Source: Cupriavidus basilensis
GTDB taxonomy: Bacteria > Pseudomonadota > Gammaproteobacteria > Burkholderiales > Burkholderiaceae
Direction: 5' to 3'
NCBI RefSeq assembly: GCF_008801925.2
Contig: NZ_CP062804.1
Location: 2,666,001 to 2,730,000, forward strand
Length of the DNA: 64,000 bases
The position numbers and the translations under genes were made by a program. Under the pieces are notes generated by a model. It did not search any database. It had not been told where the DNA came from and worked only from the letters and a program-made list of their open reading frames with translations. This document shows, in pieces, positions 21,670 to 39,963 of this stretch (the stretch's first letter is position 1; every line of letters starts with the position of its first letter).

Positions 21670-21696
21670 TAAATCTTTTCCTGCCCCAACCGATAA
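21670..21696 (+). promoter_or_regulatory. Sigma28 (FliA) promoter of fliC
   Basis: TAAAT, exactly 14 bases, then ACCGATAA: this differs from the FliA consensus TAAAG-N14-GCCGATAA at only two positions. It lies about 100 bases before the flagellin ATG, leaving a 5' leader long enough for translational control. Confidence 0.88.
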
Positions 21697-21797: not shown

Positions 21798-23126
21798 ATG
21801 TCGATGACCATCAATACCAATACGCTGTCCTTGATGACGCAAAACAACCTGAGCTCGTCGCAGGCATCGCTGAACACCGCGATCCAGCGCCTGTCCTCGG
21901 GCCTGCGTATCAATAGCGCCAAGGACGACGCCGCCGGCCAGGCGATCGCCAACCGCTTCACCGCCAACATCAACGGCCTGACGCAAGCACAGCGCAACGC
22001 CAACGACGGCATCTCGCTGGCGCAGACCACTGAAGGCGCGCTGAACGAAGTCAACAACAACCTGCAAGCTATCCGTACCCTGTCCGTCCAAGCCGCAACG
22101 GGCAGCAACTCGGCAAGCGACCTGCAATCGATCCAGGACGAAATCACGCAACGTCTGGCTGAAATCGACCGCACTTCGCAACAAACCGACTTCAACGGCG
22201 TCAAGGTCCTGTCGTCCACCGCTGCACCCCTGAGCGTACAAGTTGGCGCGCAAGACGGCCAGACCATCTCGATCGCCCTGCAGGAAATCAGCTCGAAGAC
22301 CCTGGGCATGACCGGCTTCACGGTGGCCAAGAACTCGCTGAGCACCAGCGCCGCCATCACCACCGTTGCTGCCGCCACCGGCTCCGCACCGGTTTCCGTC
22401 AACCTGGCCTCGGCTGCCACCGCACTGTCCGCCGTCGTCGGCTCGACCGTCAGCGCCAGCTCGCTGACGCTGAACAACGTGCTGGACACCGCCGGCAACG
22501 CCACCAGCAACTACGTGGTCAAGTACGGCAACGACAACTACGCTGCCTCGGTCGACGCTGCCACCGGCGACGTCACCCTGAACAAGGTCAACCTGACGGT
22601 CGGCGATGCCGCTAACGGCAACACCGGCAACACCGTCGCTGGCCAGCTGGTCAAGGTCGGCGCTGACACCAGCGGCGCTGCTGTCGCCTACGTCACCCAA
22701 GGTGGCAACAACTACGCGCTGTCTGCAGGTACGCAAGCTGGCGCCCAGGCCAACGGCGGCTCCACGACCACGGCAGTCACCGATGCAACCGCGATCCAGC
22801 TGAGCACCAGCGGCACCACCACCGCCAGCGCCCAGTTCACCGGCTCCGGCAGCACCAACCCGCTGGCCACGATCGACAAGGCGCTGGCCATGGTCGACAA
22901 GCTGCGCAGCTCGCTGGGTGCAGTGCAGAACCGTTTCGACTCGGCTATCTCGAACCTGGGCTCGGCTGTGACGAACCTGTCGGCTTCGCGCTCGCGCATC
23001 CAGGACGCTGACTACGCGACCGAAGTGTCGGCCATGTCGCGTGCCCAGATCCTGCAACAAGCTGGTACCTCTGTGCTGGCCCAGGCCAACCAGTCGAACC
23101 AAGGCGTGCTGTCGCTGCTGCGTTAA
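21798..23126 (+). CDS. fliC: Flagellin
   Basis: A 442-residue flagellin, the filament subunit exported through the flagellar secretion apparatus. The conserved N-terminal D0/D1 region (NTNTLSLMTQNNLSSSQ to about residue 140) and C-terminal D1/D0 region (from about 365, ending QSNQGVLSLLR) are intact. The central variable region (about 145-360) is rich in Ala, Thr, Ser and Asn, so it offers many Ser/Thr acceptors for O-glycosylation. AGGAG precedes the ATG. It is followed by strong hairpins, so fliC is probably mostly monocistronic, under its FliA promoter. Confidence 0.97.
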   Translation: MSMTINTNTLSLMTQNNLSSSQASLNTAIQRLSSGLRINSAKDDAAGQAIANRFTANINGLTQAQRNANDGISLAQTTEGALNEVNNNLQAIRTLSVQAATGSNSASDLQSIQDEITQRLAEIDRTSQQTDFNGVKVLSSTAAPLSVQVGAQDGQTISIALQEISSKTLGMTGFTVAKNSLSTSAAITTVAAATGSAPVSVNLASAATALSAVVGSTVSASSLTLNNVLDTAGNATSNYVVKYGNDNYAASVDAATGDVTLNKVNLTVGDAANGNTGNTVAGQLVKVGADTSGAAVAYVTQGGNNYALSAGTQAGAQANGGSTTTAVTDATAIQLSTSGTTTASAQFTGSGSTNPLATIDKALAMVDKLRSSLGAVQNRFDSAISNLGSAVTNLSASRSRIQDADYATEVSAMSRAQILQQAGTSVLAQANQSNQGVLSLLR

Positions 23127-23689: not shown

Positions 23690-25159
23690 ATGAGTTCAAC
23701 GAGTGTATCGAGTTCAACCAGCTCACCGATTTCGTCGCTTGGCGTTGGCTCCGGGCTGGACCTGAGCACCCTGCTGACCAATCTGCAGACGGCGGAGCAA
23801 GCCAAGCTCACCCCCATCACCGACGAGCAGACCGCCGCCAACAGCAAGCTGTCGGCCTATGGCGTGTTGCAAAGCGCGCTGGCGTCGTTCCAGTCGGCCT
23901 CCGCCGCACTCGGCACGGCCAGCCTGTACAACAGCACCACCACCTCGTCGAGCAACACCAGCGTGCTCACCACCACGTCGGACAATACCGCGGTGGCGGG
24001 CAGCTACGCAGTCAACGTATCGCAACTGGCGCAGTCGCAGACGCTGGTCTCGAACGGCATCACCGACAGCACCGGCCAGCAGCTGGGCAGCGCCACCATC
24101 CAGATCCAGTTCGGCACCACCACCACCAGCGGCACCACCACCACCTTCACACCCGGCAGCACCGCGGCAACGTCGATCAACATCAACGGCACCAACGACA
24201 CACTGAGCGGCATCCGCGACGCCATCAATGCCGCCAATGCCGGTGTCACAGCCAGTATCGTCAACGACGGCAGCAGCACGCCCTATCACCTGGTGTTGAC
24301 CTCGAACTCCACCGGCGCCGCTTCGAGCATGAGCATTTCGGTCAGCAGCAACGGCAGTGGCGACCCCACCACCATCAGCAACCTGCTGACGTATAACCCG
24401 GGCGGCACGACGGCGATGACGCAGAACATCGCGGCGCAGGACGCCAAGCTCACCATCAACGGCCTGGCGATCACCAGTGCCAGCAATTCGGTCCAGGGCG
24501 CGGCCCAGGGCGTGACCCTCAACCTGGCCACCGCCGGCACCAGCACGGTGAGCGTGGCCAGCAACACCAGCGCCATGGCTACCGGCGTGCAGAGCTTCGT
24601 CACCGCGTACAACACGCTGCAGTCCACGGCAGCCCAGCTCTCCGCCTACGACGCGTCCACCAACACCGCCGGTGTGCTGCTGGGCGACTCTACCCTGCGC
24701 GTGATCGAGAATCAGCTGCGCAACGTCATCAATACGCCGCAAACGGCGGTCGGCACCACCGGGCTGACCAACCTGACGCAGATCGGCATCAGCTTCAACG
24801 CCGACGGCAGCATGGCGCTGGATTCGAGCAAACTGAACGCCGCCCTCTCCAGCAACCGTACGGGCGTAGCCCAGCTGCTGAGCGGTACCGACGGAAAATC
24901 GGGCTTCGGCAACCAGCTATCGGCCGCAGCGACCGGCTTTGTCAGCACCACGGGTGCCCTGACGTCCGCCACCAACGGCGTCAACGCAACGCTCAAATCG
25001 CTCGCGACCGAGTACACCAATACACAGACCGAGATCAACGCCACCATCGCGCAGTACCAGACCGAATTCCAGAACCTGGATACGCTGATGTCGCAGATGA
25101 ACTCGACCAAGACTTACCTGACGCAGCAGTTCAGCTCTTCGAGCAGCTCTTCGGGTTGA
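23690..25159 (+). CDS. fliD: Flagellar filament capping protein (hook-associated protein 2)
   Basis: A 489-residue protein with the FliD N-terminal signature ISSLGVGSGLDLSTLLTNLQTAEQAKL and the C-terminal helical region with ATEYTNTQTEINATIAQYQTEFQNLDTLMSQM. FliD pentamers at the filament tip guide insertion of flagellin. The central domain is rich in Thr, Ser and Gly, like the flagellin. The protein ends in a run of serines. It is followed 49 bases later by its chaperone-related genes fliS and fliT. Confidence 0.96.
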   Translation: MSSTSVSSSTSSPISSLGVGSGLDLSTLLTNLQTAEQAKLTPITDEQTAANSKLSAYGVLQSALASFQSASAALGTASLYNSTTTSSSNTSVLTTTSDNTAVAGSYAVNVSQLAQSQTLVSNGITDSTGQQLGSATIQIQFGTTTTSGTTTTFTPGSTAATSININGTNDTLSGIRDAINAANAGVTASIVNDGSSTPYHLVLTSNSTGAASSMSISVSSNGSGDPTTISNLLTYNPGGTTAMTQNIAAQDAKLTINGLAITSASNSVQGAAQGVTLNLATAGTSTVSVASNTSAMATGVQSFVTAYNTLQSTAAQLSAYDASTNTAGVLLGDSTLRVIENQLRNVINTPQTAVGTTGLTNLTQIGISFNADGSMALDSSKLNAALSSNRTGVAQLLSGTDGKSGFGNQLSAAATGFVSTTGALTSATNGVNATLKSLATEYTNTQTEINATIAQYQTEFQNLDTLMSQMNSTKTYLTQQFSSSSSSSG

Positions 25160-26000: not shown

Positions 26001-27320
26001 ATGATCGGCATCAACCTTCCGGCAGATGCATCGCTTGCCCTGCGCACGGATCCGCAGGCGCTCAAGTCCGCCCTTACCGTAGCGAAGCTGGCGGCCCTGC
26101 AGCCGGTTGGCACCGTCACCGACACCGAGGGGCCTTCCGGGGGTGGCAACACCGTGCAGCAAGGCCGGGCCGCAACGGTCGGTGCCGGCATGCCGCCCCC
26201 GACCGAAGGCGCGGCAACAACTTCGGCGCGCGAGTCGCTTAGCACGGCCGCGCGCGTCATCCTCGATATCCTGGACGGCACCGATGCCGCGCCGCTGCGC
26301 AGCGCGGCGCCCGTCGTGGCCGCGCCGCCAGGCAGTGGCCAGGCCGCTTCGCTGGCAAGCGCGCTGGCCCGCCAGGTTGGGCAGAGTGGCCTGTTTTATG
26401 AGTCGCATCTCGGCCAATGGCTGAATGGCACGCGCCCGCTCGACAGCCTGATGCGCGAGCCCCAGGCCTTGCTGGGGCGCCCGCCCGCTGCCCCGCCAGC
26501 CACCACGGATGCCACGCAACCGGTGTTGCAGTTGACGTATCAGCCGGCTGCGGGCGCGGCAACGCCTGCCCCGGCCCAGGTGGCTGCCAATGTCGCCAAG
26601 GCCGCCGCCGCCGTCGCGGCGGAGTCAGGCAGCCTTCCCCTTCCCGCGGAAGGTCCCGGTGCCGACACGCCGGCACAAGCGCAGAAAGCTGCGGGCCTTT
26701 ACTCAGCGCCCGCCCCCGGCGCCGCCTCCACGGCGGCGACGCCTGCCGCAAATCCGGCCACGCCCTCCGCGCATCTCGCCCAGCAGGCAACCCAGGCCTA
26801 CCAGGCAGCTTCCGCCACGCCAGCGCCGCGTACGGTGCATCTCTCGGCGGACGACATCTTCGGCGCAAGCAAGCCGGCCGCGGACCCGTTGCAAGCCACC
26901 AGCGCCACCGGCCCCGCCGTGCATCCCGATGCCGCCACCTTGGTGCGCCAGCAGCTCGACACCCTGGCAACCCAGCAATTGCGCTGGATGGGCGAAGCGT
27001 GGCCGGGTACGCCGATGCAATGGCAGATCACGCGTGAGCAAGATGACAACCCCGCGCGCGGGCAGGGCCAGCCGGATGCCATTGCCGACGGCGTCTGGTC
27101 GACCCGGCTGGTCCTCGAGTTCCCCAACCTCGGCACCGTGGAGGCCAGAATCAAGCTGACCGGCAACAGCATCGAAGCACGCCTGGCGGCGCCTGCCTCG
27201 GTCAACCTCCTGGCCGGCGCGCGCGCGCAGCTCCAGGATCGCCTCGCCGCGACCGGCCTCGATCTCACCGCGTTGGCGGTGGATGGCATCTTCCAACCGG
27301 CCGGGAGCACCAGGCGGTGA
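26001..27320 (+). CDS. Second FliK-like protein (hook-length control C-domain)
   Basis: A 439-residue protein. Residues 1 to about 310 are a long Ala/Pro/Thr-rich, low-complexity region. The C-terminal ~130 residues (QLRWMGEAWPGTPMQWQI, TRLVLEFPNLGTVEARIKLTGNSIEARL) are a FliK-type Flg_hook domain. A classical fliK stands at 46.7 kb, so this is a second copy. Its stop codon overlaps the GTG of the FlhB-C-like gene by four bases, which makes a functional pair likely. Confidence 0.78.
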   Translation: MIGINLPADASLALRTDPQALKSALTVAKLAALQPVGTVTDTEGPSGGGNTVQQGRAATVGAGMPPPTEGAATTSARESLSTAARVILDILDGTDAAPLRSAAPVVAAPPGSGQAASLASALARQVGQSGLFYESHLGQWLNGTRPLDSLMREPQALLGRPPAAPPATTDATQPVLQLTYQPAAGAATPAPAQVAANVAKAAAAVAAESGSLPLPAEGPGADTPAQAQKAAGLYSAPAPGAASTAATPAANPATPSAHLAQQATQAYQAASATPAPRTVHLSADDIFGASKPAADPLQATSATGPAVHPDAATLVRQQLDTLATQQLRWMGEAWPGTPMQWQITREQDDNPARGQGQPDAIADGVWSTRLVLEFPNLGTVEARIKLTGNSIEARLAAPASVNLLAGARAQLQDRLAATGLDLTALAVDGIFQPAGSTRR

Positions 27321-27877: not shown

Positions 27878-30121
27878 ATGAAACCTATCCAGATCGCTCC
27901 CAAGTTGCCCCGCCAGATCGACAAGGCTCGCACACTTTATCAAGCCGGCCAGTACCGCGCGGCGCTCAGGGAAGCCGAAAAGGCAGAGCAGATCCTTGGC
28001 AAGCGGGCCGACGCCTCCTACTGGCAAATGGCGGCCCGGCTGGCGCTGGAAGACACCAAGAAGGCCGGCGAGATCCTGCGCGACGGGCTGCAGCATTTTC
28101 CTGACGATATCGAACTGATGTCCCTCGGCGGCTTCGTCCTGCTGCGCAACGGCGAGCATCAGCAAGCCAAGCGGTTGCTGCAGCGCTGCGTCGACATCGA
28201 CCCCGGCTCGCTCAGCGCGTGGGTGCACTTTACCGCCCTGCTGCTGGAGCTGCGAGAGCCCGCCGCCGCAAAGGAGGCGGCGCTCAAGGCGCTGGCCATC
28301 AATCCGGATGAGGCCACGGCGGTGTGCAACTACGCCATCGCCTTGAAGGAAACCGGCGAAATGGGTGAGGTCATGGCCCCACTCAGGAAGGCCGTGAAGC
28401 TGGCCCCGCGCAACCTCGCCATCCGCGCCAACCTGCTGTTCGCCATGCTGTTCGCCCAGGAAACCACGGCGCTAGACCTGCTGCGCGAGGCCAAGGCCTA
28501 TGAAGCGCTGCTGCTGGCCGGCCCCCGTTTCCCGCGCGACGACAACGCGCCAAAGCGCACTAGCGGGCCGATACGGCTGGGGCTGATCTCGAACGACCTG
28601 ATGCGCCACGCCTGCTCCTACTTCGTCCTGCCTCTGATCGCGAACCTGGATCGCGCACGGGTGGAAGTGGTGGCGTTCTCGCTGCACCCGCTCAGCGACC
28701 ATGTGACGGAGAAGATCCGGCTACATGCCAACCAGTTCATCGAACTGGCCGGGAAATCGACTGCCGATATTGTCGAGATTGTCCGCAATGAGCAGCTCGA
28801 CGTGCTGATCGACCTCGGCGGGCATACCGGGACTTCACCGCTGCCCTATATGGTGCACGGACTGGCGCCGGTGCAGATGACTTGGCTTGGCTATCCCGGC
28901 AGCACCGGATTGAAATCCATCCAGTACCGCATCAGCGACTGGACCTGCGACCCTGAAGGGTTCGAGCCGCACTATGCGGAGACCTTGCTCAGGGCGCCCG
29001 GCGTCTTTTGCACGTATGCGCCGTTGATACACAGCCCGCTCAAGGCCTACGGCCCCACGTACAGGGTCCGGGAAACGCCTGCGCTGCGTACCGGCACGAT
29101 TACCTTTGGCTCCTGCAATAACCTGGGCAAGGTCACCGACCAGACCGTGGCGCTGTGGCGCACGGTACTGGAGCGCTGCCCGAACAGCCAGCTGCTGATC
29201 GAGGCACGGGACATCGACAGCGAGGCCGTGCGCGCGCCCCTGCTGACACGCCTGACGCAGGCTGGCATCGACCCGGACCGGGTGGTCTGCGTCCCCAGGC
29301 AGGCGGCGAACCAATACCTGACCTATCACGACATCGACATTGTGCTGGACACCGTGCCCCTGACCGGCGGCACCACCACGTGCGACGCCTTGTGGATGGG
29401 TGTACCGGTGGTCACGCTGGCAGGCTCGGCCTTCCACTCGCGGATGTCCGCCAGTTTCCTGCACGCGCTCGGCCTGGATGGCCTGAGCTGCCGCAATGAA
29501 GAGGAATACGTGGACGTGGCCGTGCAACTGGCCGCGGACATCGGCCAGCTCAACGACTTGCGGCTGTCTCTGCGGCAGCGCTTCGAGCAGGGTCCTCTGG
29601 CCGATGGCGCCGCCTTCGCGCGCTGGCTGGAAGACCAGCTCACCGAAGCAGTCCGGCCGCACCGCCAGGTCGACAGCACGCCCGGCTCGCACGACGGCGT
29701 GTACTTCTCCGACACCTGGCACACCATGGCGGAAATCGTGATTGCCATCGCGGGATTGCTTGAGGCCGGCCGTTACGTGGAACTGCGCGCGCTGCTCGAG
29801 ACCTTCTGCGCGAAGTGGCCCAGGCACTGGATCGTTCCCTACGCACTCGCCGAGATCGAACATCGCAACGGCCAGCACGAGGCCGCGGTCGATTACCTGA
29901 TGGAGAGCGTCGGCCTGCGGCCCTATCACCTGCCGCTGTACCGGCTGCTTAGCGCGCGGCTCGACGAATACCAGTACGACAAGGGCATGCTTGGCGAATT
30001 CATGCTGCAGCAACTCGGCGTGCCGCTGGCCCTCGTCGAACAGCAGGGTGCGCCAACAGTGCTGGAAGTCCTGGGCATCAACGTCGGGCAGCCAGTGCGA
30101 GCCGAGCCGGCACATGCATAG
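27878..30121 (+). CDS. TPR-GT41 (O-GlcNAc-transferase-like) protein glycosyltransferase, copy 1
   Basis: A 747-residue cytoplasmic enzyme. Residues 1-215 are TPR-like helical repeats (for example AKRLLQRCVDIDPGSLSAW). The GT41/SPINDLY catalytic region spans about 230-560: IRLGLISNDLMRHA, the block HGLAPVQMTWLGYPGSTG near 327-344, ITFGSCNNLGKVTDQTVALW near 408-427 and LDTVPLTGGTTTCDALWMG near 490-508, all matching the nucleotide-binding blocks of OGT. A C-terminal extension of about 170 residues with further helical repeats follows. Its place behind the fliC/fliD/fliS block points to flagellin as acceptor. The sugar donor is inferred from the neighbouring genes. The ATG at 27878 is chosen from the start of homology. 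Confidence 0.88.
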   Translation: MKPIQIAPKLPRQIDKARTLYQAGQYRAALREAEKAEQILGKRADASYWQMAARLALEDTKKAGEILRDGLQHFPDDIELMSLGGFVLLRNGEHQQAKRLLQRCVDIDPGSLSAWVHFTALLLELREPAAAKEAALKALAINPDEATAVCNYAIALKETGEMGEVMAPLRKAVKLAPRNLAIRANLLFAMLFAQETTALDLLREAKAYEALLLAGPRFPRDDNAPKRTSGPIRLGLISNDLMRHACSYFVLPLIANLDRARVEVVAFSLHPLSDHVTEKIRLHANQFIELAGKSTADIVEIVRNEQLDVLIDLGGHTGTSPLPYMVHGLAPVQMTWLGYPGSTGLKSIQYRISDWTCDPEGFEPHYAETLLRAPGVFCTYAPLIHSPLKAYGPTYRVRETPALRTGTITFGSCNNLGKVTDQTVALWRTVLERCPNSQLLIEARDIDSEAVRAPLLTRLTQAGIDPDRVVCVPRQAANQYLTYHDIDIVLDTVPLTGGTTTCDALWMGVPVVTLAGSAFHSRMSASFLHALGLDGLSCRNEEEYVDVAVQLAADIGQLNDLRLSLRQRFEQGPLADGAAFARWLEDQLTEAVRPHRQVDSTPGSHDGVYFSDTWHTMAEIVIAIAGLLEAGRYVELRALLETFCAKWPRHWIVPYALAEIEHRNGQHEAAVDYLMESVGLRPYHLPLYRLLSARLDEYQYDKGMLGEFMLQQLGVPLALVEQQGAPTVLEVLGINVGQPVRAEPAHA

Positions 30122-30233
30122 GCTACAGCATGCCCCGGGGCGCAGAATGCCCCCCGGTTCAGCCGCCTGGCGCAGCTGCGCCTGGATTCCGCGCTGCAAC
30201 GGCCTGCGGGCCTGGTAAATCCATCCTTCCCTT

Positions 30234-32459
30234 ATGAAGAAAGTCGCAATCAATCCCAAGGCGGACCGGTGTATCAAGCAAGCCGAGACCAGTCATTACG
30301 CTGGCCGCTTTGAGGAAGCCATCGCCCATGCGGAGAAGGCCAGGAAGCTCGCGCCGCATATGGCCAAGCCCTATTATTGGGCCGCGTTTTCCTCGCTGGA
30401 ACTGCATCGCCTCGACGATGCCTACCGTTTCGCCCAGGAAGGACTCGCCGCGCATCCCGGCCAGCCCGACATCGCGTCCATGTGCGCGCGCATCCTTGTG
30501 GCGATGGGCAAGCTGGAGGACGCCAGGACCATGCTGCGCGACTGCGTGGCATCCCACCCGCAGTGCCTGGAAGCCTGGGCGAACTACGCCATCGTGCTGA
30601 ACAAGCTGGGCGAGCATGCCGAAGCCAAGCAAGCCTCGCTCAAGGCCATCGAAATCGCTCCGGATCATCCGGCGATCCTGGCCAACTATGCCAACGACCT
30701 GAAAAACACTGGCTTTGCCGAGGACGCGATCCAGGTGTTGCGCCGCGCCGCGGCAACCGCGCCAACCAACAAGAGCATCCGCTCAAACCTGCTGTTCATG
30801 CTTCTCTTCGGCGAGAAGACGAGCGCGCAAGACTTGCTGGCCGAAGCCTCCAGGTATGCGCAAGTGCTGGCGCGCGAGCGGCTGCCGGCGTTGCCCATGC
30901 AGCCCCGCCCCCGCTCGGACAGGATCCGCATCGGCATCCTGTCGAACGACTTGTACAAGCATGCCTGCGCCTACTTCCTGATCCCGCTGATCGCCAACCT
31001 CGACCGCGCCAGGTTCGAAGTCGTGGCGCTCAGCCTGCACGCCTATCACGACAACGTCACGCACAAGATATCCATCTACTGCGACCGCTTCGTCAGCCTG
31101 GCCAATAAGCCGGATGGTGAAATCGTCAAGCTCATCCGCGAGGAAAACGTCGATGTGCTGATCGACCTTGGCGGATATACGGGCAGCTCGCCGCTGCACT
31201 ACATGGTCCACGGCCTGGCTCCGGTGCAGCTCACCTGGCTTGGCTATCCTGGCAGCACCGGCATGCCGGCAGTGCAGCATCGCGTGACCGACTGGATCGG
31301 GGATCCGGCCGGGGCAGAGCCCAACTACACCGAGAACCTGCTGCGCGCACCCGGCCCGTTTGCCGTCTACCACCCGCTGGTTGGCAATCCGCTGACGGTC
31401 TATCAGAGCGATTACCAGGTCAGGGAAACGCCGGCGCTGCGCAACGGCTTCATTACCTTCGGCTCCTGCAACAACATCGGCAAGCTGACCGACCGGACCC
31501 TGCGGATGTGGAGCGCCGTCCTGGCGCGCTGCCCTGGCAGCCGGCTGCTGGTCGAGGCGGCGGGGCTCGATACGGATGAAGTGAAGGTGCCGCTACTGGA
31601 GCGCATGGCGCAAGCCGGCATCGACACGCAGCGCGTCACCTGCATCCCCCGGGAAGGCAAGAACCAGTACCTGACCTACCACGACATCGATATCGCACTG
31701 GATACCTCCCCGGTCACCGGCGGCACCACGACCTGCGACACGCTCTGGATGGGCGTGCCCGTGGTCTCGCTGGCCGGCCCGGCATTCCACACCCGCGTCT
31801 CCGCGCCCTTTCTGCACGCCGTAGGCCTGGGCGGCCTGGTCTGCGAAACGGAGCAGGCCTACGTCGAGATGGCCGCGCAGCTTGCCGCGGACGTGGAGCA
31901 GCTCAACGCGCTGCGACTCTCCCTGCGGCATCGCTTCGAGAAGAGCGCCATCGCCGACGTGGCCGGCTTCACGCGCTGGTTCGAAGACCAGGCGGCGCAT
32001 CTGGTCAGCCAGCACCGGGATGTGAGCCACCTCAAGCCGCGTACGCAGGACGGCGTGTTCTGCAATGGCGCCTGGCATTCGATGGAAGAACTGGTGCTGA
32101 CCATCGGGCTGCTTCTGCAGGAAGGACGTCATATCGAGCTGAACAGCCTGCTGGAAAACATGTCGGCCAAGTGGAGCAAGCACTGGCTGATCGCCTTCGC
32201 GCTGGGTGAGATGGCCCAGCGCGAAGGCCGCTACGACCGCGCGCTCGAACTACTGATGGAAGCCGTCAACCTGCGTCCGTACCACCTGCCGCTCTACCGC
32301 CTGCTCAGCGTGCGGATGCGCGAAGGCGGTCATGACACGAGTCCCGTGGCCGATATCCTGCAGCAGCAGTTCGGCCTCGACCTGGCCCTGCTCGATAGCC
32401 AGGGCAAACCTTCGACCTACGAAATCCTGGGCATCCAGGTGCTGGAGGAAGCAGCATGA
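30234..32459 (+). CDS. TPR-GT41 (O-GlcNAc-transferase-like) protein glycosyltransferase, copy 2
   Basis: A 741-residue paralogue of the preceding gene, colinear over its complete length: N-terminal TPR-like repeats, the GT41 blocks HGLAPVQLTWLGYPGSTG, FITFGSCNNIGKLTDRT and LDTSPVTGGTTTCDTLWMG, and the same C-terminal extension. The two copies look like an old tandem duplication that has diverged, mostly in the TPR part, which selects acceptors in OGT. The stop codon overlaps the start of rfbF by four bases. This ties the transferase directly to the CDP-sugar genes. Confidence 0.88.
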   Translation: MKKVAINPKADRCIKQAETSHYAGRFEEAIAHAEKARKLAPHMAKPYYWAAFSSLELHRLDDAYRFAQEGLAAHPGQPDIASMCARILVAMGKLEDARTMLRDCVASHPQCLEAWANYAIVLNKLGEHAEAKQASLKAIEIAPDHPAILANYANDLKNTGFAEDAIQVLRRAAATAPTNKSIRSNLLFMLLFGEKTSAQDLLAEASRYAQVLARERLPALPMQPRPRSDRIRIGILSNDLYKHACAYFLIPLIANLDRARFEVVALSLHAYHDNVTHKISIYCDRFVSLANKPDGEIVKLIREENVDVLIDLGGYTGSSPLHYMVHGLAPVQLTWLGYPGSTGMPAVQHRVTDWIGDPAGAEPNYTENLLRAPGPFAVYHPLVGNPLTVYQSDYQVRETPALRNGFITFGSCNNIGKLTDRTLRMWSAVLARCPGSRLLVEAAGLDTDEVKVPLLERMAQAGIDTQRVTCIPREGKNQYLTYHDIDIALDTSPVTGGTTTCDTLWMGVPVVSLAGPAFHTRVSAPFLHAVGLGGLVCETEQAYVEMAAQLAADVEQLNALRLSLRHRFEKSAIADVAGFTRWFEDQAAHLVSQHRDVSHLKPRTQDGVFCNGAWHSMEELVLTIGLLLQEGRHIELNSLLENMSAKWSKHWLIAFALGEMAQREGRYDRALELLMEAVNLRPYHLPLYRLLSVRMREGGHDTSPVADILQQQFGLDLALLDSQGKPSTYEILGIQVLEEAA

Positions 32460-33229
32460 AAGCCGTCATCCTGGCGGGCGGGCTGGGTACCCGCATATCC
32501 GAAGAATCCCACCTGCGTCCCAAGCCCATGATTGAAGTGGGCGGCAAGCCGATCCTGTGGCACATCATGAAGATGTATGCCGCACACGGCATCAATGACT
32601 TCGTCATCTGCCTGGGCTACAAGGGCTACGTCATCAAGGAATACTTCGCCAACTACTTCCTGCATATGTCGGATGTGACCTTCGACATGTCGGAAAACCG
32701 CATGGACGTGCACTGCCGCAAGGCCGAGCCGTGGCGCGTGACGCTGGTGGACACCGGCGAGGAATCGCAGACCGGCGGCCGCCTGCGGCGCGTGCGCGAG
32801 TACCTCACGCCCGGCGAGCCGTTCTGCTTTACCTATGGCGACGGCGTGTCCGACATCGACCTCACCGCCGAGATCGCCTTTCACCGCAACCACGGCCGCT
32901 GGGCCACGGTGGCGGCGGTGCAGCCGCCGGGACGCTACGGTGCGCTCGAGCGCACCAGCGAAGGCATGGTGGCCGGTTTCGCGGAAAAGCCGCGCGGCGA
33001 CGGCGCCTGGATCAATGGCGGCTTCTTCGTGCTGCAGCCCGAAGTGCTTGACCTGATCGCCGACGACAAGACCAGTTGGGAGCAAGCCCCCATGGAAGAG
33101 CTCGCCACGCGCGGGCACTTGCTGGCGTTCGAGCACCAGGGCTTCTGGCAGCCGATGGACACCCTGCGCGAAAAGAACATGCTGGAGCAGTTGTGGCAAT
33201 CCGGCGCGGCACCCTGGAAGACATGGTGA
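32456..33229 (+). CDS. rfbF: Glucose-1-phosphate cytidylyltransferase
   Basis: A 257-residue nucleotidyltransferase that makes CDP-glucose from CTP and glucose 1-phosphate. The start KAVILAGGLGTRISEESHLRPKPM and the length are those of RfbF/DdhA. Other blocks are FCFTYGDGVSDIDL and the C-terminal FWQPMDTLREKNMLE. Its ATG overlaps the stop of the second glycosyltransferase (ATGA), and its own stop overlaps the rfbG start, so the cluster is translationally coupled. Confidence 0.95.
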   Translation: MKAVILAGGLGTRISEESHLRPKPMIEVGGKPILWHIMKMYAAHGINDFVICLGYKGYVIKEYFANYFLHMSDVTFDMSENRMDVHCRKAEPWRVTLVDTGEESQTGGRLRRVREYLTPGEPFCFTYGDGVSDIDLTAEIAFHRNHGRWATVAAVQPPGRYGALERTSEGMVAGFAEKPRGDGAWINGGFFVLQPEVLDLIADDKTSWEQAPMEELATRGHLLAFEHQGFWQPMDTLREKNMLEQLWQSGAAPWKTW

Positions 33230-34293
33230 CCCGCATGCTAGACGGCTACACCGGCCGCCCGGTCTTCGTGACCGGCCACACCGGCTTCAAGGGCGCATGG
33301 CTCGCGCTATGGCTGGCGCGCCTCGGCGCGCGGGTGACAGGCTACGCGCTGGCGCCCGAGTCGCCGGCCGGCCTGTTTACCGCGGCCGAAGTCCAGAGCA
33401 CGCTGCAAGCCCACCACCTGGCCGACATCCGCGATGCGAGCACGCTGGCTGCCGCCATGCAGGCAGCGCAGCCGGAGATCGTCTTCCACCTGGCGGCGCA
33501 GCCGCTGGTGGGGGCCGGCTATCGCGACCCGGTGGCCAACTGGGCCACCAACGTCATGGGCACGGTCAACCTGCTCGAGGCGGTGCGCCACTGCCCTTCG
33601 GTACGTGCCGTGGTGGTCATCACCACCGACAAGTGCTACGACAACAAGGAATGGTTCTGGGGCTACCGCGAGACCGATCCGCTCGGCGGGCATGACCCGT
33701 ACAGCGCCAGCAAGGCCGCGGCCGAACTGGTTGCCGCCAGCTATCGCAATGCCTTCCTGGCCGAGCGCGGCGTGCTGGTCGCCACCGCGCGCGCCGGCAA
33801 TGTGATCGGCGGCGGCGACTGGTCCGACAATCGCCTGGTGCCCGATGCCGCCCGCGCGGCCGCCGCCGGCGCGGTGCTCGAAATCCGCAACCCGCAGGCC
33901 ACGCGGCCCTGGCAGCATGTGCTGGAAGCCCTGCACGGCTACCTGCTGCTTGGCGCACGCCTGATGGCCGGAGAGCAAGCGCTTGCGCGCGCCTTCAACT
34001 TCGGCCCGCAAGCCGCCGACAACCTCGCCGTGGGCGCCGTGCTGGCGCGCCTGGCGCAACACTGGCCCGAACTGCGCTGGGCGCATCGCCCGGATCCCAC
34101 CGGCGCCGCACCGCACGAAGCTCGCAACCTTCACCTGGACTCCGCCCTGGCCAGAGGACTGCTTGGCTGGGAGCCGCGCTGGCCGCTCGACCAGGCCCTT
34201 GCCGCCACCGCCCACTGGTACCGCGCCGTGCATGAAGCCCCGGCCCAGGCGCGGTCCGTCACCGAACGACAAATCGAGCAATTCTGCGTATGA
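33226..34293 (+). CDS. rfbG: CDP-glucose 4,6-dehydratase
   Basis: A 355-residue extended short-chain dehydrogenase that converts CDP-glucose to CDP-4-keto-6-deoxyglucose. The NAD-binding loop TGHTGFKGAWLALWL, the TDKCYDNKEWFWGYRE segment specific for RfbG, and the active-site YSASK are visible. The start could be ATG 33223, GTG 33226 or ATG 33235. GTG 33226 gives the same four-base overlap as the neighbouring junctions and good spacing to GGAAG, so it is preferred. The stop overlaps the next gene. Confidence 0.94.
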   Translation: MTRMLDGYTGRPVFVTGHTGFKGAWLALWLARLGARVTGYALAPESPAGLFTAAEVQSTLQAHHLADIRDASTLAAAMQAAQPEIVFHLAAQPLVGAGYRDPVANWATNVMGTVNLLEAVRHCPSVRAVVVITTDKCYDNKEWFWGYRETDPLGGHDPYSASKAAAELVAASYRNAFLAERGVLVATARAGNVIGGGDWSDNRLVPDAARAAAAGAVLEIRNPQATRPWQHVLEALHGYLLLGARLMAGEQALARAFNFGPQAADNLAVGAVLARLAQHWPELRWAHRPDPTGAAPHEARNLHLDSALARGLLGWEPRWPLDQALAATAHWYRAVHEAPAQARSVTERQIEQFCV

Positions 34294-35573
34294 CAGACGC
34301 TGCCCACGCCTTTCCTGATACCCATTCCAGCCACGCTGCCAGCGACGCGGCCTGCCGTTCCTGTGGCCAGCCGCTCGCGCAGACCGTGGTGGACCTTGGC
34401 CTGTCGCCAGTCTCCAACGCATTCATCAAGGCGGACGACCTGGCCCTGGCGGAAACCTTCTACCCGCTGCATGCGATGGTGTGCCAGCACTGCTGGCTCG
34501 TCCAGTTGCGCGACGCCACGCCTGCCCAGACACATTTTCACGACGACTACGTCTACTTCTCGTCGTACTCGTCGTCATGGCTGGAGCACGCCCAGCGCTA
34601 TGTCAGCACCATGACCCAGCGTCTCGGCCTGAACGCCGACAGCCGCGTGATGGAGCTGGCCAGCAACGACGGCTACCTGCTGCAATATTTCGTGCAAGCC
34701 GGCATTCCGTGCCTGGGCGTCGAGCCCACCGCCAACACCGCCGCTGCCGCACGCGCCAAGGGCGTGGACAGCCGCGAGCTGTTCTTTGGCCGCGACACCG
34801 CGCACGCGCTGCGCCAGCAAGGCTGGGAAGTCGACCTGCTGCTGGGCAACAACGTGCTGGCGCATGTGCCTGACATCAACGACTTCGTCGGCGGCATGCC
34901 GCTGGTGCTCAAGGCCCAGGGCGTGATCACGCTGGAGTTTCCGCACCTGCTGCGCCTGATCGAGCAGAACCAGTTCGACACGCTTTATCACGAGCACTAC
35001 TCGTACCTGTCGCTATCGGCGCTGGAGCCGGTATTCACCCGGGCCGGCCTGCGCGTGTTCGATATCGAGCACCTGGCCACCCATGGCGGCAGCCTGCGCG
35101 TGTTTGCCTGCCATGCCGGCGCCAGCCACGCGACCCGCCCCTCGGTGGCCGCCACGCTGGAAGAAGAGCGCGAGGCCGGGCTGCGCTCGGCCGCGCTGTA
35201 TGCCGGCTTTGCCGAGCGCGTGCGCAAGGCCAAGCGCGACCTGCTCGCCTTCCTGATCGAAGCCCGCAATGCCGGCAAGCGCATCGCGGCGTATGGCGCC
35301 GCCGCCAAGGGCAATACGCTGCTCAACTACTGCGGCGCCGGCACCGACTTCATCGACTACGTGGTCGATCGCAACCCCACCAAGCAGGGTCGCCTGCTGC
35401 CCGGCACGCGCATCCCGGTGGTGGCGCCCGAGCAGGTCTTCAGCGACAAGCCCGACTACCTGCTGATCCTGCCCTGGAACATCAAGGACGAAGTCATCGC
35501 GCAGATGGCCGGCATCCGCGAGTGGGGCGGCCGCTTCGTGGTGGCCATTCCGGAAACCGCGGTGCTGCCATGA
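34290..35573 (+). CDS. NDP-hexose C-methyltransferase (NovU/TylCIII type)
   Basis: A 427-residue SAM-dependent enzyme. The N-terminal zinc-binding module has paired cysteines (CRSCG and CQHC), the central methyltransferase domain contains VMELASNDGYLLQYF, and the C-terminal domain carries IAAYGAAAKGNTLLNYCG, as in the NDP-sugar C-methyltransferase family. Such enzymes add a methyl branch to a carbon next to the 4-keto group. The position between the 4,6-dehydratase and an epimerase fits a CDP-4-keto-6-deoxy sugar as substrate. Which carbon is methylated cannot be told from the sequence. Confidence 0.88.
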   Translation: MTDAAHAFPDTHSSHAASDAACRSCGQPLAQTVVDLGLSPVSNAFIKADDLALAETFYPLHAMVCQHCWLVQLRDATPAQTHFHDDYVYFSSYSSSWLEHAQRYVSTMTQRLGLNADSRVMELASNDGYLLQYFVQAGIPCLGVEPTANTAAAARAKGVDSRELFFGRDTAHALRQQGWEVDLLLGNNVLAHVPDINDFVGGMPLVLKAQGVITLEFPHLLRLIEQNQFDTLYHEHYSYLSLSALEPVFTRAGLRVFDIEHLATHGGSLRVFACHAGASHATRPSVAATLEEEREAGLRSAALYAGFAERVRKAKRDLLAFLIEARNAGKRIAAYGAAAKGNTLLNYCGAGTDFIDYVVDRNPTKQGRLLPGTRIPVVAPEQVFSDKPDYLLILPWNIKDEVIAQMAGIREWGGRFVVAIPETAVLP

Positions 35574-36115
35574 TTTTCACGCGGACCCCCATCGAAGGCG
35601 CATGGCTGGTGGACCCGGAGCCCCTGGCGGACGAGCGCGGCTTCTTTGCGCGCACGGCTTGCGTGGATGCCTTCGCGGACCACGGGCTGAACGGGCGCTT
35701 TGTGCAGCAGAGCATCTCGCGCAATACCCGGGCCGGCATCCTGCGTGGCATGCACCTCCAGTACGAGCCTGCCGGCGAGGACAAGCTGGTGCGCGTCACC
35801 ACCGGCGCCATCTTCGATGCGATCCTGGACCTGCGCCCCTACTCGCCAAGCTTCCGCCAGTGGTTTTCGGTGGAGCTGACGGCGCAGAACCAGCGCGCGC
35901 TGTATATCCCCAGGGGCGTGGCGCACGGTTTCCAGACCCTGACCGAGTTGTCGGAAGTTTTCTACCAGATGACCGTGCCCTTCGCGCCCGCCCACAGCGG
36001 CGGCGTGCGCTGGGACGATCCCGAGATCGGCATTGCCTGGCCGCCGTGCGAGAACCGGCTGATCTCGGCCAAGGACCTTGCACTGCCGTGCCTGGCGGCG
36101 GTCAGTTGTTATTGA
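35570..36115 (+). CDS. NDP-4-keto-6-deoxyhexose epimerase (RmlC type)
   Basis: A 181-residue cupin enzyme of the RmlC family, which epimerises C3 and/or C5 of a 4-keto-6-deoxy sugar nucleotide. Family blocks: QQSISRNTRAGILRGMHLQ with the active-site His, KLVRVTTGAIFDAILDLRP, and YIPRGVAHGFQTL. Start and upstream stop overlap as ATGA. RmlC normally works on dTDP sugars, but here the only activated sugar made nearby is CDP-linked. Whether it epimerises one or two carbons is unknown. Confidence 0.88.
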   Translation: MIFTRTPIEGAWLVDPEPLADERGFFARTACVDAFADHGLNGRFVQQSISRNTRAGILRGMHLQYEPAGEDKLVRVTTGAIFDAILDLRPYSPSFRQWFSVELTAQNQRALYIPRGVAHGFQTLTELSEVFYQMTVPFAPAHSGGVRWDDPEIGIAWPPCENRLISAKDLALPCLAAVSCY

Positions 36116-36215
36116 ATTTCGTATTGCCCGAAACACCGAATTTCCCGAATTGCCGAATCATCAAATCCAACCGGTCAGCCAAGCCGACCAACAAGCCAAA
36201 CTGCGGAGCCATTCC

Positions 36216-37286
36216 ATGAGTACCGATCAATTGCAGAAACTGTCCAAAGCCCTGCGCGAAGTTGGCACCAGCGCGGCCGCGCGCGACCGGCTGGTCGCGC
36301 TGTGCAAGTCCATCGAGCAAGACCTGTCCGGCTACGAAGGCAGCGTGCGCGATGACATCACGGGCCCCATCGTCGACGCCATGTACGACGACGAATCGCG
36401 CCTGCGCAAGACGCTGGCCGATGGCACCGTGTTCGAGTTCCTCTACCGCACCAAGATCGCCCGCGATTTCCTGATGAGCACGCCGGCGCAGCCGGACCAC
36501 GTATGGGAGCCGCAAACCACCAAGCTGCTGGTCAAGCTGTGCCAGAACGGCGGCAACGCGGTAATTGGCGGCGCTTACTTCGGCGACCAGGTAATCCTGA
36601 TGGCCAAGCAGCTGGCGGCCGCCGGCGGCGCCTGCCACGCGTTCGAGCCCAATGCCGACCAGCTCGGCATGCTGCGCAACAACGCGCAGCTCAACCATGT
36701 GGAGAACATCCACAGCTGGCGCCTGGGCCTGTGGTCGGACAGCAGCACCCAGCTGCGCCTGGTCGGCAACGACTCCTTCGCCCACGCCGAGCGCGCCGAC
36801 GGCGCTGCCGGCGACGACAGCTTTGCCACCATCACCATCGACGACTACTGCGCCCAGCAAAAGCTCGACAAGCTCAGCCTGATCATGCTGGACATCGAAG
36901 GCGCCGAGCTTGACGTGTTCAAGGGCGCGCGCGAGCAACTGTCGCGCCCGGCGCCCGATGCCCCGAACATCGTGTTCGAGGTGCACCGCCACTATGTGGA
37001 CTGGAGCAACGGCCTGGAGAACGCGGAGATCATCCAGCTGCTCCAGGGCTTCGGCTACAGCGTGTTCGCGGTGCGCGACTTCAACTCCAACGTGGACATG
37101 GCCGGCCGCCCCATCGAGCTGATCCCGGTCGACGAGGTCTACCTGGAAGGCCCGGCGCACGGCTTCAACATGGTCGCCGTCAAGGACCCGTCCCTGCTGC
37201 AGGGCGCGGACTTCTCCGTGTGCCATGGCGTGAGCCCCAAGCTGCTGTGGCACCGTGACCCGGCGCTGCATCACCCGTTGTCGTGA
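36216..37286 (+). CDS. FkbM-family methyltransferase
   Basis: A 356-residue protein. The C-terminal half is an FkbM-type SAM methyltransferase: NAVIGGAYFGDQVILMAKQL as nucleotide loop region, CHAFEPNADQLGMLRNNAQLN and LIMLDIEGAELDVFKGA. FkbM enzymes methylate hydroxyl groups of sugars and polyketides. The N-terminal 100 residues are helical and specific to this protein. The ATG at 36216 has GGAG at good distance; 100 bases of non-coding DNA precede it, the only real gap inside the sugar gene cluster. Its role as O-methyltransferase of the glycan is an inference. Confidence 0.82.
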   Translation: MSTDQLQKLSKALREVGTSAAARDRLVALCKSIEQDLSGYEGSVRDDITGPIVDAMYDDESRLRKTLADGTVFEFLYRTKIARDFLMSTPAQPDHVWEPQTTKLLVKLCQNGGNAVIGGAYFGDQVILMAKQLAAAGGACHAFEPNADQLGMLRNNAQLNHVENIHSWRLGLWSDSSTQLRLVGNDSFAHAERADGAAGDDSFATITIDDYCAQQKLDKLSLIMLDIEGAELDVFKGAREQLSRPAPDAPNIVFEVHRHYVDWSNGLENAEIIQLLQGFGYSVFAVRDFNSNVDMAGRPIELIPVDEVYLEGPAHGFNMVAVKDPSLLQGADFSVCHGVSPKLLWHRDPALHHPLS

Positions 37287-37294
37287 GGCCAGGC

Positions 37295-38116
37295 ATGCCC
37301 GGCTCCGTACCTTGTACCGTGATCGGCGGCGCCGGCTTTGTCGGCCAGCGCCTGGTCCAGGCGCTGCGCCAGGCCGGGCATGAAGTCCATGTGCCCGGCC
37401 GGGACGACCCCGGCCTGCTGGCGCGCGACCTCGGCCGCGTGTTCTATTGCGCCGGCCTCACCGCCGACTTTGCCGCACGCCCCTTCGATACGGTCGAAGC
37501 CCATGTCGGGCTGCTGGCCCGGCTGCTGCAGGCGGGCCGCTGGGACCACCTGGTCTATCTCTCGTCCACCCGCCTGTATGACAGCTCCGCGCTGCCGGTA
37601 GGCGACGAGGCCGGCGCGCTCACGCTGCAGCCAGCCAACCCGCGGCATCTCTACGACCTCTCCAAGGCGCTCGGCGAAAACCTGTGCCTCACGCTCGCGC
37701 CGGAGCGCACAGCCGTGGCGCGGTTGTCCTGCGTCTTCGACTGGTCGCCGGGCTCGCCTGGCTTTCTCTCCGAATGGCTGCAGCGCGCATCGGCCGAGCG
37801 CGCGTTCCAGCTCGACAGCGATGCCGCCTTGGTGCGTGACTACATCCACCTCGACGATGTCGTGCAAGCCCTGGCCACCATGTCGGCACTGGGCGAGCGC
37901 GGAATCTTCAACGTGGCCAGCGGCGCCAACGTCTCCAACGGCGAACTGGCCGACGTGTTCAACCGCGCAGGCTGGGCAGTCGAACTGGCCAGGTCCACCC
38001 GGGCGCAACCGGCGGCGGTATGCAGCGTGACGCGCCTGCGCGCGCTAGGCGTAGCACCGCGCGACGTGCGCGAGGTGCTGGCCGCTCACCTGGAAGGAGC
38101 AAGAACATGGAACTGA
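37295..38116 (+). CDS. NAD-dependent epimerase/dehydratase-type sugar reductase
   Basis: A 273-residue extended short-chain dehydrogenase. The cofactor loop VIGGAGFVGQRL, the serine region YLSSTRLYD, and the YxxxK pair in LYDLSKALGE are visible. It probably reduces the 4-keto group at the end of the deoxy-sugar pathway. I prefer the ATG at 37295, which has GAGG six bases before it; a GTG at 37283 overlaps the upstream stop but has no ribosome site. It overlaps the following acyltransferase by 10 bases. Confidence 0.8.
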   Translation: MPGSVPCTVIGGAGFVGQRLVQALRQAGHEVHVPGRDDPGLLARDLGRVFYCAGLTADFAARPFDTVEAHVGLLARLLQAGRWDHLVYLSSTRLYDSSALPVGDEAGALTLQPANPRHLYDLSKALGENLCLTLAPERTAVARLSCVFDWSPGSPGFLSEWLQRASAERAFQLDSDAALVRDYIHLDDVVQALATMSALGERGIFNVASGANVSNGELADVFNRAGWAVELARSTRAQPAAVCSVTRLRALGVAPRDVREVLAAHLEGARTWN

Positions 38117-38760
38117 TCGACCAGACACCTGAAAGCCTTGCCGCCTACACCTGCGCGCAGGTCGCGGCGCTGGTGCCGGACGGCAAGGCAGCGACGCTGC
38201 TGCCACTGATCGAGCGCAACCAGGCGCAAGCGCTGGCCCGGGTGGAACGCTGCATCAACGCCGTACGCATGTGGCACCCCGGGCGCTTCAACTACCTGCA
38301 CTCCAGCCAGTACTGCCAGTACCTCTACTACCTGGCCAACACCATCTGGCGCAACGAGGGCGACGCCCGCGCCTGCACGCGGCTGTTCCTGCTGAACAAG
38401 GCGCTCAACGGCATCGACCTGTTCTACGAGATCGAGATGCCGGAAGTCTTTTTCATCGGGCACTCGGTCGGCATCGTGCTGGCAAAAGCCACCTACGGCA
38501 ATTACCTCGTGCTGTACCAGAACTCCACGGTAGGCAAGAACCACGGCGCCGCCCCGGTGATCGGCGACGGCGTGGTGATGTATCCCAATACCGCCATCAT
38601 CGGCCGCAGCCATGTGGGCAATGGATCGGTGATTGCGCAGGGCGTTAGCGTGATCAATCGCGATACGCCAGGGGATTGCCTGGTGTACGCGGGAAATGCC
38701 GGGGATCTGGTGTGCAAGCCGGTGCGAGAACCAGCAGCGGAAGAGTATTTCCGGCTGTAA
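38107..38760 (+). CDS. Hexapeptide-repeat acyltransferase (CysE/LbH type)
   Basis: A 217-residue protein with a left-handed beta-helix in its C-terminal half: YGNYLVLYQNSTVGKNHGAAPVIGDGVVMYPNTAIIGRSHVGNGSVIAQGVSVI shows the I-G-x6 hexapeptide rhythm. The N-terminal part is helical as in serine acetyltransferases. In this cluster it more probably acetylates the sugar than serine. The ATG at 38107 follows GGAAGGAGC and lies inside the end of the preceding gene. It is the last gene of the cluster before the IS element. Confidence 0.8.
   Translation: MELIDQTPESLAAYTCAQVAALVPDGKAATLLPLIERNQAQALARVERCINAVRMWHPGRFNYLHSSQYCQYLYYLANTIWRNEGDARACTRLFLLNKALNGIDLFYEIEMPEVFFIGHSVGIVLAKATYGNYLVLYQNSTVGKNHGAAPVIGDGVVMYPNTAIIGRSHVGNGSVIAQGVSVINRDTPGDCLVYAGNAGDLVCKPVREPAAEEYFRL

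Positions 38761-38952: not shown

Positions 38953-39963
<1,011 letters not shown>

What the first reader, a model, noticed from the sequence alone, without database searches (positions are those of the whole stretch)
27878..38760. Flagellin glycosylation locus that pairs two GT41 transferases with a CDP-branched-sugar pathway
Two tandem TPR-GT41 enzymes lie behind fliC-flaG-fliD-fliS-fliT and overlap with rfbF, rfbG, a NovU/TylCIII-like C-methyltransferase, an RmlC-like epimerase, an FkbM methyltransferase, a reductase and an acyltransferase. The enzyme order (4,6-dehydratase, 3-epimerase, C-methyltransferase, 4-ketoreductase, O-methyltransferase) parallels the noviose pathway, but with CDP in place of dTDP. 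Bacterial OGT-like enzymes normally use UDP-GlcNAc, so a CDP-linked, C-methylated donor would be new for GT41.
Basis: partly seen in the sequence, partly recalled or inferred. Interest (0 to 1): 0.8.

Follow-up and report, generated by a model that had tools for sequence, protein, structure and literature searches.

The report
Flagellin sugar-transferases tied to CDP-sugars
A Cupriavidus flagellar gene cluster carries two protein-glycosylating enzymes joined to a pathway for a rare methyl-branched sugar on a CDP carrier; the same pairing recurs in many bacteria and sits beside the flagellin gene of Azotobacter vinelandii, which may explain a CDP-sugar found there decades ago with no known use.

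Summary
Two TPR-GT41 genes (27878-32459) are coupled to rfbF-rfbG-CMT-rmlC-fkbM-reductase-acyltransferase (32456-38760) behind fliC-flaG-fliD-fliS-fliT. The genome has one rfbF and one rfbG, both here.

The pairing is a conserved system. In 60 Cupriavidus genomes this GT41 type (800 bits or more) occurs in 28, each time within 3.1 kb of rfbG. In the fetched loci it forms one clade. Late sugar enzymes swap (C-methyl neutral, C-methyl amino, 3,6-dideoxy-like) while RfbF/RfbG stay (59 of 70 loci). SPINDLY (GDP-fucose) is the nearest solved structure, ahead of human OGT. SPINDLY's base-reading Lys is an invariant Glu (E441, 78 of 78); OGT's Arg is Thr in most rows.

The best product match is CDP-vinelose (recalled: 6-deoxy-3-C-methyl-2-O-methyl-L-talose, from Azotobacter vinelandii), not a noviose analogue. 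A. vinelandii's only rfbG lies in such a cassette beside fliC and a GT41, with the same panel genes as three loci of the clade.

No chemistry was tested. The A. vinelandii GT41 lies outside the Glu clade and is fused to a GT2, so its donor stays open.

The parts
21798..23126 (+). fliC flagellin (442 aa), presumed acceptor
   Evidence: NCBIfam flagellin models, best NF005294 505 bits
23270..23647 (+). flaG
   Evidence: homologous gene in the same place in Cupriavidus loci; name from context, no family search run; first ATG in the frame
23690..25159 (+). fliD
   Evidence: PF07195, PF02465
25209..25655 (+). fliS
   Evidence: PF02561
25657..25992 (+). fliT-like
   Evidence: position after fliS; homologue in the same place in Cupriavidus loci; no family search run on it
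26001..27320 (+). fliK-like (hook-length control C-terminal domain)
   Evidence: PF02120 48.7 bits
27317..27637 (+). flhB-like small protein
   Evidence: homologue in the same place, 70-85% identity, in Cupriavidus loci; name is recall, no family search run
27878..30121 (+). GT41a: TPR + GT41 protein glycosyltransferase (747 aa)
   Evidence: PF13844 138 bits, TPR; E441-type motif; duplicate of GT41b, 384 of 740 aligned residues identical
30234..32459 (+). GT41b: TPR + GT41 protein glycosyltransferase (741 aa)
   Evidence: PF13844 135 bits; AlphaFold2 model pLDDT 89; nearest solved fold SPINDLY
32456..33229 (+). rfbF, glucose-1-phosphate cytidylyltransferase
   Evidence: TIGR02623 464 bits; only copy over the cut-off in the genome
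33223..34293 (+). rfbG, CDP-glucose 4,6-dehydratase
   Evidence: TIGR02622 482 bits; only copy over the cut-off in the genome; start inferred
34290..35573 (+). sugar C-methyltransferase (TylC3/TcaB9 type)
   Evidence: PF08421, PF08484; best solved relative D-mycarose 3-C-methyltransferase 4rv9, 289 bits; HEH motif
35570..36115 (+). RmlC-like 3,5- or 3-epimerase
   Evidence: TIGR01221 165 vs 155.75; His, Lys, Tyr, Asp motifs kept (their role is recalled)
36216..37286 (+). FkbM-family methyltransferase, inferred sugar O-methyltransferase
   Evidence: PF05050; a CmcI-type O-methyltransferase stands in other loci, never together with fkbM (0 of 70)
37283..38116 (+). SDR reductase, inferred 4-ketoreductase
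   Evidence: PF01370 71 bits; homologue in the A. vinelandii cassette at 43% identity
38107..38760 (+). hexapeptide acyltransferase (EpsC/CysE-like)
   Evidence: NF041874 49 bits, under its cut-off; PF00132 under its cut-off

Best explanation
This is a cytoplasmic flagellin O-glycosylation island. RfbF makes CDP-glucose; RfbG makes CDP-4-keto-6-deoxyglucose; the RmlC-like enzyme epimerises it (3,5, towards the L-series); the C-methyltransferase adds the branch methyl (most likely C3); the SDR reduces C4; FkbM O-methylates (most likely O2); the hexapeptide enzyme may acylate. The product is a CDP-vinelose-type sugar. The tandem TPR-GT41 enzymes bind flagellin by their TPRs and transfer this CDP-sugar directly to Ser/Thr before export. 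Shown: gene identities, single copies in the genome, conserved pairing, clade, predicted fold. Inferred: the donor, the exact sugar, the acceptor, and the order of steps.
Confidence: 0.66

Rival explanations
1. The CDP-sugar is the donor for GT41, but the sugar is not vinelose-like: a D-series, noviose-like or otherwise C-methylated 6-deoxyhexose.
For: RmlC and CMT families do not fix stereochemistry or C3 versus C5; NovW is among the solved relatives of the RmlC-like protein; the late genes are fkbM+hexAT here, not the CmcI set of A. vinelandii.
Against: C-methyltransferase nearest to a 3-C-methyltransferase among solved structures; fkbM and CmcI replace each other (19 and 25 of 70 loci, 0 with both), and both families have members recalled to 2-O-methylate a 6-deoxyhexose.
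Confidence: 0.3
2. GT41a adds the first sugar from a common donor (UDP-GlcNAc, UDP-Glc or dTDP-Rha) and GT41b, or the reverse, extends it with the CDP-sugar.
For: Two GT41 genes here and in 4 other Cupriavidus genomes; A. vinelandii has GT41 fused to GT2.
Against: 23 of 28 Cupriavidus genomes have one GT41 of this type, and in 11 of 13 loci looked at there is hardly room for another transferase; GT41a and GT41b are a duplication within the C. basilensis group and share E441, Q478, D502.
Confidence: 0.2
3. The GT41s use UDP-GlcNAc like animal OGT and the CDP-sugar goes to LPS or a capsule through a transferase elsewhere; the neighbourhood is accidental.
Against: 28 of 28 linkage in Cupriavidus, kept though inverted in Comamonadaceae, uracil-reading Arg of OGT absent in all but 2 of 78 clade rows, SPINDLY-like fold.
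Confidence: 0.08

Closest known systems
SPINDLY (Arabidopsis GT41, GDP-fucose protein O-fucosyltransferase)
   Different: guanine-reading K689 is Glu here; Y744 is Val or Leu in 70 of 78 clade rows; plant regulatory protein, not flagellin island
Flagellin glycosylation islands of Enterobacteriaceae (De Maayer and Cowan 2016, PMC4875605; passages read)
   Same: transferase plus sugar genes next to fliC; GT41 in 14 of 42 island types; FkbM methyltransferases; CDP-4-keto-6-deoxyglucose genes in type 23 (4 strains)
   Different: that paper suggested GlcNAc derivatives for GT41, allowing wider specificity; the passages I read do not tie GT41 to the CDP genes
Clostridium butyricum flagellin island with predicted CDP-paratose genes (PMC13317340; one passage read)
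   Same: RfbF, RfbG, RfbH, RfbS in a flagellin island; CDP-sugar predicted on flagellin
   Different: the passage names a glucosyltransferase; GT41 has 0 occurrences; paratose, not a C-methyl sugar
Burkholderia cenocepacia flagellin glycosylation (Hanuszkiewicz 2014; paper not held; recalled)
   Same: glycosyltransferase and sugar genes near flagellar genes in a related genus
   Different: recalled to use a dTDP-4-amino-4,6-dideoxyglucose donor; no CDP pathway recalled
CDP-vinelose of Azotobacter vinelandii (Okuda and co-workers, 1960s; recalled)
   Same: CDP carrier; 6-deoxy, C-methyl, O-methyl hexose; five sugar genes of the window have homologues in the A. vinelandii cassette (RfbF, RfbG, CMT, RmlC, reductase)
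   Different: use unknown as far as I recall; A. vinelandii has CmcI, TylF and PhyH genes and another hexapeptide gene in place of fkbM and hexAT
dTDP-noviose pathway (recalled)
   Same: dehydratase, RmlC-type epimerase, C-methyltransferase, reductase, O-methyltransferase logic
   Different: dTDP carrier; C5 methyl; antibiotic, not flagellin

Membership tests
GT41 | PF13844 over cut-off | tested here: met
   138 and 135 bits vs 25
GT41 | N-terminal TPR superhelix | tested here: met
   TPR models; helical repeats in the model
GT41 | catalytic Lys (OGT K842, SPY K665) | tested here: met
   K417; 77 of 78 clade rows, one Arg; equivalence to SPY; OGT number recalled
OGT (UDP-GlcNAc) | uracil-reading Arg (R904) | tested here: not met
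   T481 in GT41b (alignment, loop with a two-residue gap); clade: T 68, R 2, others 7, gap 1 of 78; role of R904 from PMC10027727 passage
OGT (UDP-GlcNAc) | uses UDP-GlcNAc | not testable with these tools
   needs enzyme assay
SPINDLY (GDP-fucose) | guanine-reading Lys K689 | tested here: not met
   E441 in 78 of 78 clade rows; role
SPINDLY (GDP-fucose) | fold closest to SPY | tested here: met
CDP-vinelose pathway | glucose-1-phosphate cytidylyltransferase and CDP-glucose 4,6-dehydratase | tested here: met
   TIGR02623, TIGR02622 over cut-off
CDP-vinelose pathway | sugar C-methyltransferase | tested here: met
   PF08484 224 bits; 4rv9 289 bits; position on the ring not shown
CDP-vinelose pathway | 3,5-epimerase giving the L-series | tested here: inconclusive
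   TIGR01221 narrowly over cut-off
CDP-vinelose pathway | 2-O-methyltransferase | tested here: inconclusive
   FkbM family only
CDP-vinelose pathway | presence in A. vinelandii | tested here: met
   cassette in L103/L106; genome identity
CDP-vinelose pathway | product is CDP-vinelose | not testable with these tools
   needs chemistry
dTDP-noviose pathway | dTDP activation | tested here: not met
   RfbF/RfbG are CDP-type; no gene of the island passed the RmlA or RmlB cut-off
Flagellin glycosylation island | transferase and sugar genes next to flagellin genes | tested here: met
Flagellin glycosylation island | glycan on flagellin | not testable with these tools
   needs mass spectrometry
B. cenocepacia FlmQ-type system | sequence kinship of its transferase to this clade | not tested
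   paper not held; no named FlmQ sequence was compared

The most novel reading that the evidence does not exclude
A clade of GT41 enzymes (invariant Glu in the place where SPINDLY reads guanine) reads cytosine and transfers CDP-activated branched or dideoxy sugars straight onto flagellin; CDP-vinelose, a nucleotide sugar without known use, is the flagellin-glycosylation donor of A. vinelandii and its kin, and vinelose-type sugars coat flagella of many Betaproteobacteria.
Probability: 0.45. Interest if true: 0.85.

Novelty: new variant of a known kind. Interest (0 to 1): 0.74.

Why it matters
GT41 donors known to me are UDP-GlcNAc, UDP-glucose and GDP-fucose. A CDP-sugar clade with a clear sequence mark would add a nucleotide class to the family of human OGT and tell which residues read the base. 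It would also give genes, a transferase and an acceptor to CDP-vinelose, and make its use testable by one deletion in a laboratory nitrogen fixer. The swappable late enzymes make a ready set for glycan engineering of flagellin.

Tried and rejected
Noviose analogue: kept only as a rival; carrier differs. Gene fusion GT41-rfbF (P0058): its middle is out of frame, a frameshifted reading across adjacent genes; not used as fusion evidence. Simple GT41-presence test: rejected, since GT41s of other lineages are common (192 of 399 Burkholderiales genomes at E 1e-60) and mostly not linked to rfbG in the listed rows. E441 as universal mark of CDP use: rejected, 7 rfbFG-linked loci have K, D, N or G there; the four D/N rows all lie in rfbFG loci, but 14 rows outside have Q. 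Sigma-28 promoter before GT41a: recalled consensus, up to 3 mismatches, one site in the window (21670, before fliC), none before GT41a. A glycan mass in print for a clade member: a review passage gives 2,150 and 1,600 Da for Acidovorax avenae flagellin (PMC8364246), but I did not test whether that species has the island. Naming G078 by its reductase: one search listed no full-length identical protein (best full-length 80%, one fragment 99%); settled it. Automatic ORF choice picked antisense ORFs in places; counts rest on tblastn instead. Papers: ten searches; 'not in print' is not claimed beyond these.
Full report
What is there. The window lies in a Cupriavidus genome (8.94 Mb, 8 contigs; the nearest named homologue of GT41b, 94%, is from C. 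basilensis). Behind fliC, flaG, fliD, fliS, fliT, a fliK-like and an flhB-like gene come GT41a (27878-30121) and GT41b (30234-32459), then rfbF, rfbG, a C-methyltransferase, an RmlC-like epimerase, an FkbM methyltransferase, an SDR reductase and a hexapeptide acyltransferase (to 38760). Start and stop codons overlap through most of the run, which suggests one operon. An IS110-type transposase (38968-39963) and then fliF follow.

Whole genome. One gene passes the cut-off for glucose-1-phosphate cytidylyltransferase and one for CDP-glucose 4,6-dehydratase, both here. GT41 matches lie in two genes, both here. So a CDP-6-deoxyhexose in this organism would come from this island.

Conservation. A scan of named genomes with an alignment of 26 GT41s gave 79 loci (the best 80 of 262 confirmed stretches). 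A panel of window proteins was mapped on them. In most Cupriavidus loci the order fliD-fliS-fliT-GT41-rfbF-rfbG is kept. In Acidovorax, Rhodoferax, Curvibacter and Methyloversatilis loci the GT41 follows a flagellin gene and the sugar genes run the other way. Aquaspirillum (L021), Thiobacillus (L027) and a Helicobacteraceae bin (L045) have GT41 with the sugar genes, but no flagellin gene in the stretch fetched. Linkage survives inversion, which speaks for a working tie.

Numbers. In 60 Cupriavidus genomes: rfbG in 32; GT41 of 800 bits or more in 28; all 28 have rfbG on the same contig within 3,067 bases; 4 have rfbG without it; 28 have neither. Five genomes have only a weaker GT41 (246-398 bits); 1 of the 5 has rfbG. 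In 399 Burkholderiales genomes (two GT41 candidates scored per genome, 150 rows listed, weaker ones not) 8 of 9 hits over 500 bits lie within 15 kb of rfbG, the ninth being in a genome whose second hit is adjacent; 2 of 6 at 440-500; 0 of 55 at 380-440; 5 of 80 at 320-380. These counts are not corrected for kinship.

Clade and motif. 126 GT41 catalytic domains from 98 loci were aligned; a tree of 125 (one short row dropped) has a clade of 78 with support 99 (quick method) that is exactly the set of Glu-441 rows. In it E441 and D502 are invariant (78 of 78), and Q478, Y479 and Y482 hold in 77 of 78, one row having a gap. 59 of 70 hold rfbF and rfbG. Of the other 11, L050 has rfbG at its edge; L044 has rfbG just outside the fetched stretch; L025, L028, L029, L065 and L117 have an rfbG elsewhere in the genome or on another contig; L032, L037, L039 and L042 are cut by contig ends and their genomes were not checked. 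56 of 70 show fliC or fliD in the stretch. Outside the clade 7 of 28 loci are rfbFG-linked, but all seven (L105, L106, L108-L112) were fetched because of rfbG, so this share is no rate.

What varies. In the 70 loci, 56 have the C-methyltransferase. Nineteen (window included) have CMT, rmlC, reductase, fkbM, hexAT. Twenty have the reductase plus a CmcI-type O-methyltransferase. Eight have CMT with a DegT aminotransferase and a GNAT enzyme. Three have an RfbH-like enzyme, SDR, rmlC and no CMT. One (L063) has an RfbH-like enzyme and a split transketolase. fkbM and CmcI never occur together (19 and 25 of 70, 0 with both). The constant part is RfbF and RfbG. The simplest reading is that the transferase needs the CDP carrier and tolerates different sugars. 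In 11 of 13 Cupriavidus loci that I chose with both flanks, no stretch over 965 nt between the flhB-like gene and fliF lacks a panel match (L012 and L019 have longer ones), so a second transferase gene has hardly room there.

Which sugar. The C-methyltransferase is nearest to D-mycarose 3-C-methyltransferase among solved structures; no NovU was among the hits. From recall, A. vinelandii makes CDP-vinelose, 6-deoxy-3-C-methyl-2-O-methyl-L-talose, whose use I do not know to be established. Its enzyme needs would be cytidylyltransferase, 4,6-dehydratase, 3,5-epimerase, C3-methyltransferase, 4-ketoreductase to talo, 2-O-methyltransferase. I looked for this cassette in A. vinelandii. Of 398 genomes of the family of a Pseudomonas locus, seven have AnfG/VnfG. 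One, G078 (5,366,370 bases), has VnfK identical over 475 residues to PDB 5n6y and AnfD identical over 515 to 8boq, structures that I recall as A. vinelandii. Two of the seven have rfbG; G078 has one copy. It stands in fliC - GT41 fused to GT2 - [TylF-type OMT, PhyH, CmcI-type OMT, reductase, hexapeptide, CMT, RmlC, RfbG, RfbF on the other strand]. Identities to the window proteins: RfbF 74, CMT 55, RfbG 53, reductase 43, RmlC 40 percent. By the panel (genes outside the panel were not compared) its sugar-gene classes equal those of L038 and L061 (Acidovorax) and L040 (a bin labelled Gammaproteobacteria), loci with the E441-type GT41 and no GT2 hit. Pfam names the CmcI family 'Rhamnosyl O-methyltransferase/CmcI'; I recall a member that methylates O2 of rhamnose, and an FkbM member, NoeI, that methylates O2 of fucose. 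This fits a 2-O-methyl group made by either enzyme.

What does not fit. The A. vinelandii GT41 is outside the E441 clade, has Lys at that place, and carries a GT2, so there the CDP-sugar could be used by the GT2. The window has an acyltransferase and FkbM rather than CmcI, so its sugar may be an acylated relative of vinelose. Nothing here measures a glycan.

Known background. PMC4875605 (passages) reports GT41 in 14 of 42 island types, suggested to add GlcNAc derivatives while allowing wider specificity, and CDP-4-keto-6-deoxyglucose genes in one type. PMC13317340 (one passage) predicts CDP-paratose genes (RfbF, RfbG, RfbH, RfbS) in a Clostridium butyricum flagellin island, without GT41. PMC7591256 (passages) shows a TPR transferase, FlmG, modifying flagellin with pseudaminic acid, its TPR part binding flagellin: the same working idea. 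The B. cenocepacia paper is not held. No held paper joins 'CDP-glucose 4,6-dehydratase', flagellin and glycosyltransferase in that wording; of the three papers I read one passage of PMC13317340 and only the listing of the others.

Verdict. Observation confirmed; interpretation right in its main claim by gene-context evidence, to be corrected from noviose to a vinelose-type product, and extended to a conserved clade. New variant of a known kind.

Noticed in passing
38968-39963: IS110-type transposase gene between the acyltransferase and fliF; in 10 of 13 other Cupriavidus loci looked at, the unassigned gap before fliF is under 850 nt, too short for it.
   Followed up: partly
L106 5137-8910 and L105 14787-18416: GT41 fused to a GT2 domain in A. 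vinelandii and in a second genome with AnfG/VnfG (G039), both beside fliC and an rfbFG-CMT cassette.
   Followed up: partly
L063 11948-16759: CDP cassette with an RfbH-like enzyme and a split transketolase pair next to the E441-type GT41: perhaps a two-carbon-branched dideoxy sugar for flagellin.
   Followed up: partly
L045: The sugar genes with two GT41 genes on a contig binned as Helicobacteraceae (Campylobacterota): transfer between phyla or mis-binning.
   Followed up: no
26001-27320 and 46687-48156: Two genes with the FliK hook-length domain (PF02120) in the same flagellar region.
   Followed up: no
L110 2622-12979: A locus with two distant GT41 genes flanking rfbF, rfbG, an RfbH-like gene and rmlC; other GT41 lineages paired with a CDP pathway.
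   Followed up: partly
21670-21696: Sigma-28-like site (3 mismatches to a recalled consensus) upstream of fliC; the only one found in the window.
   Followed up: no
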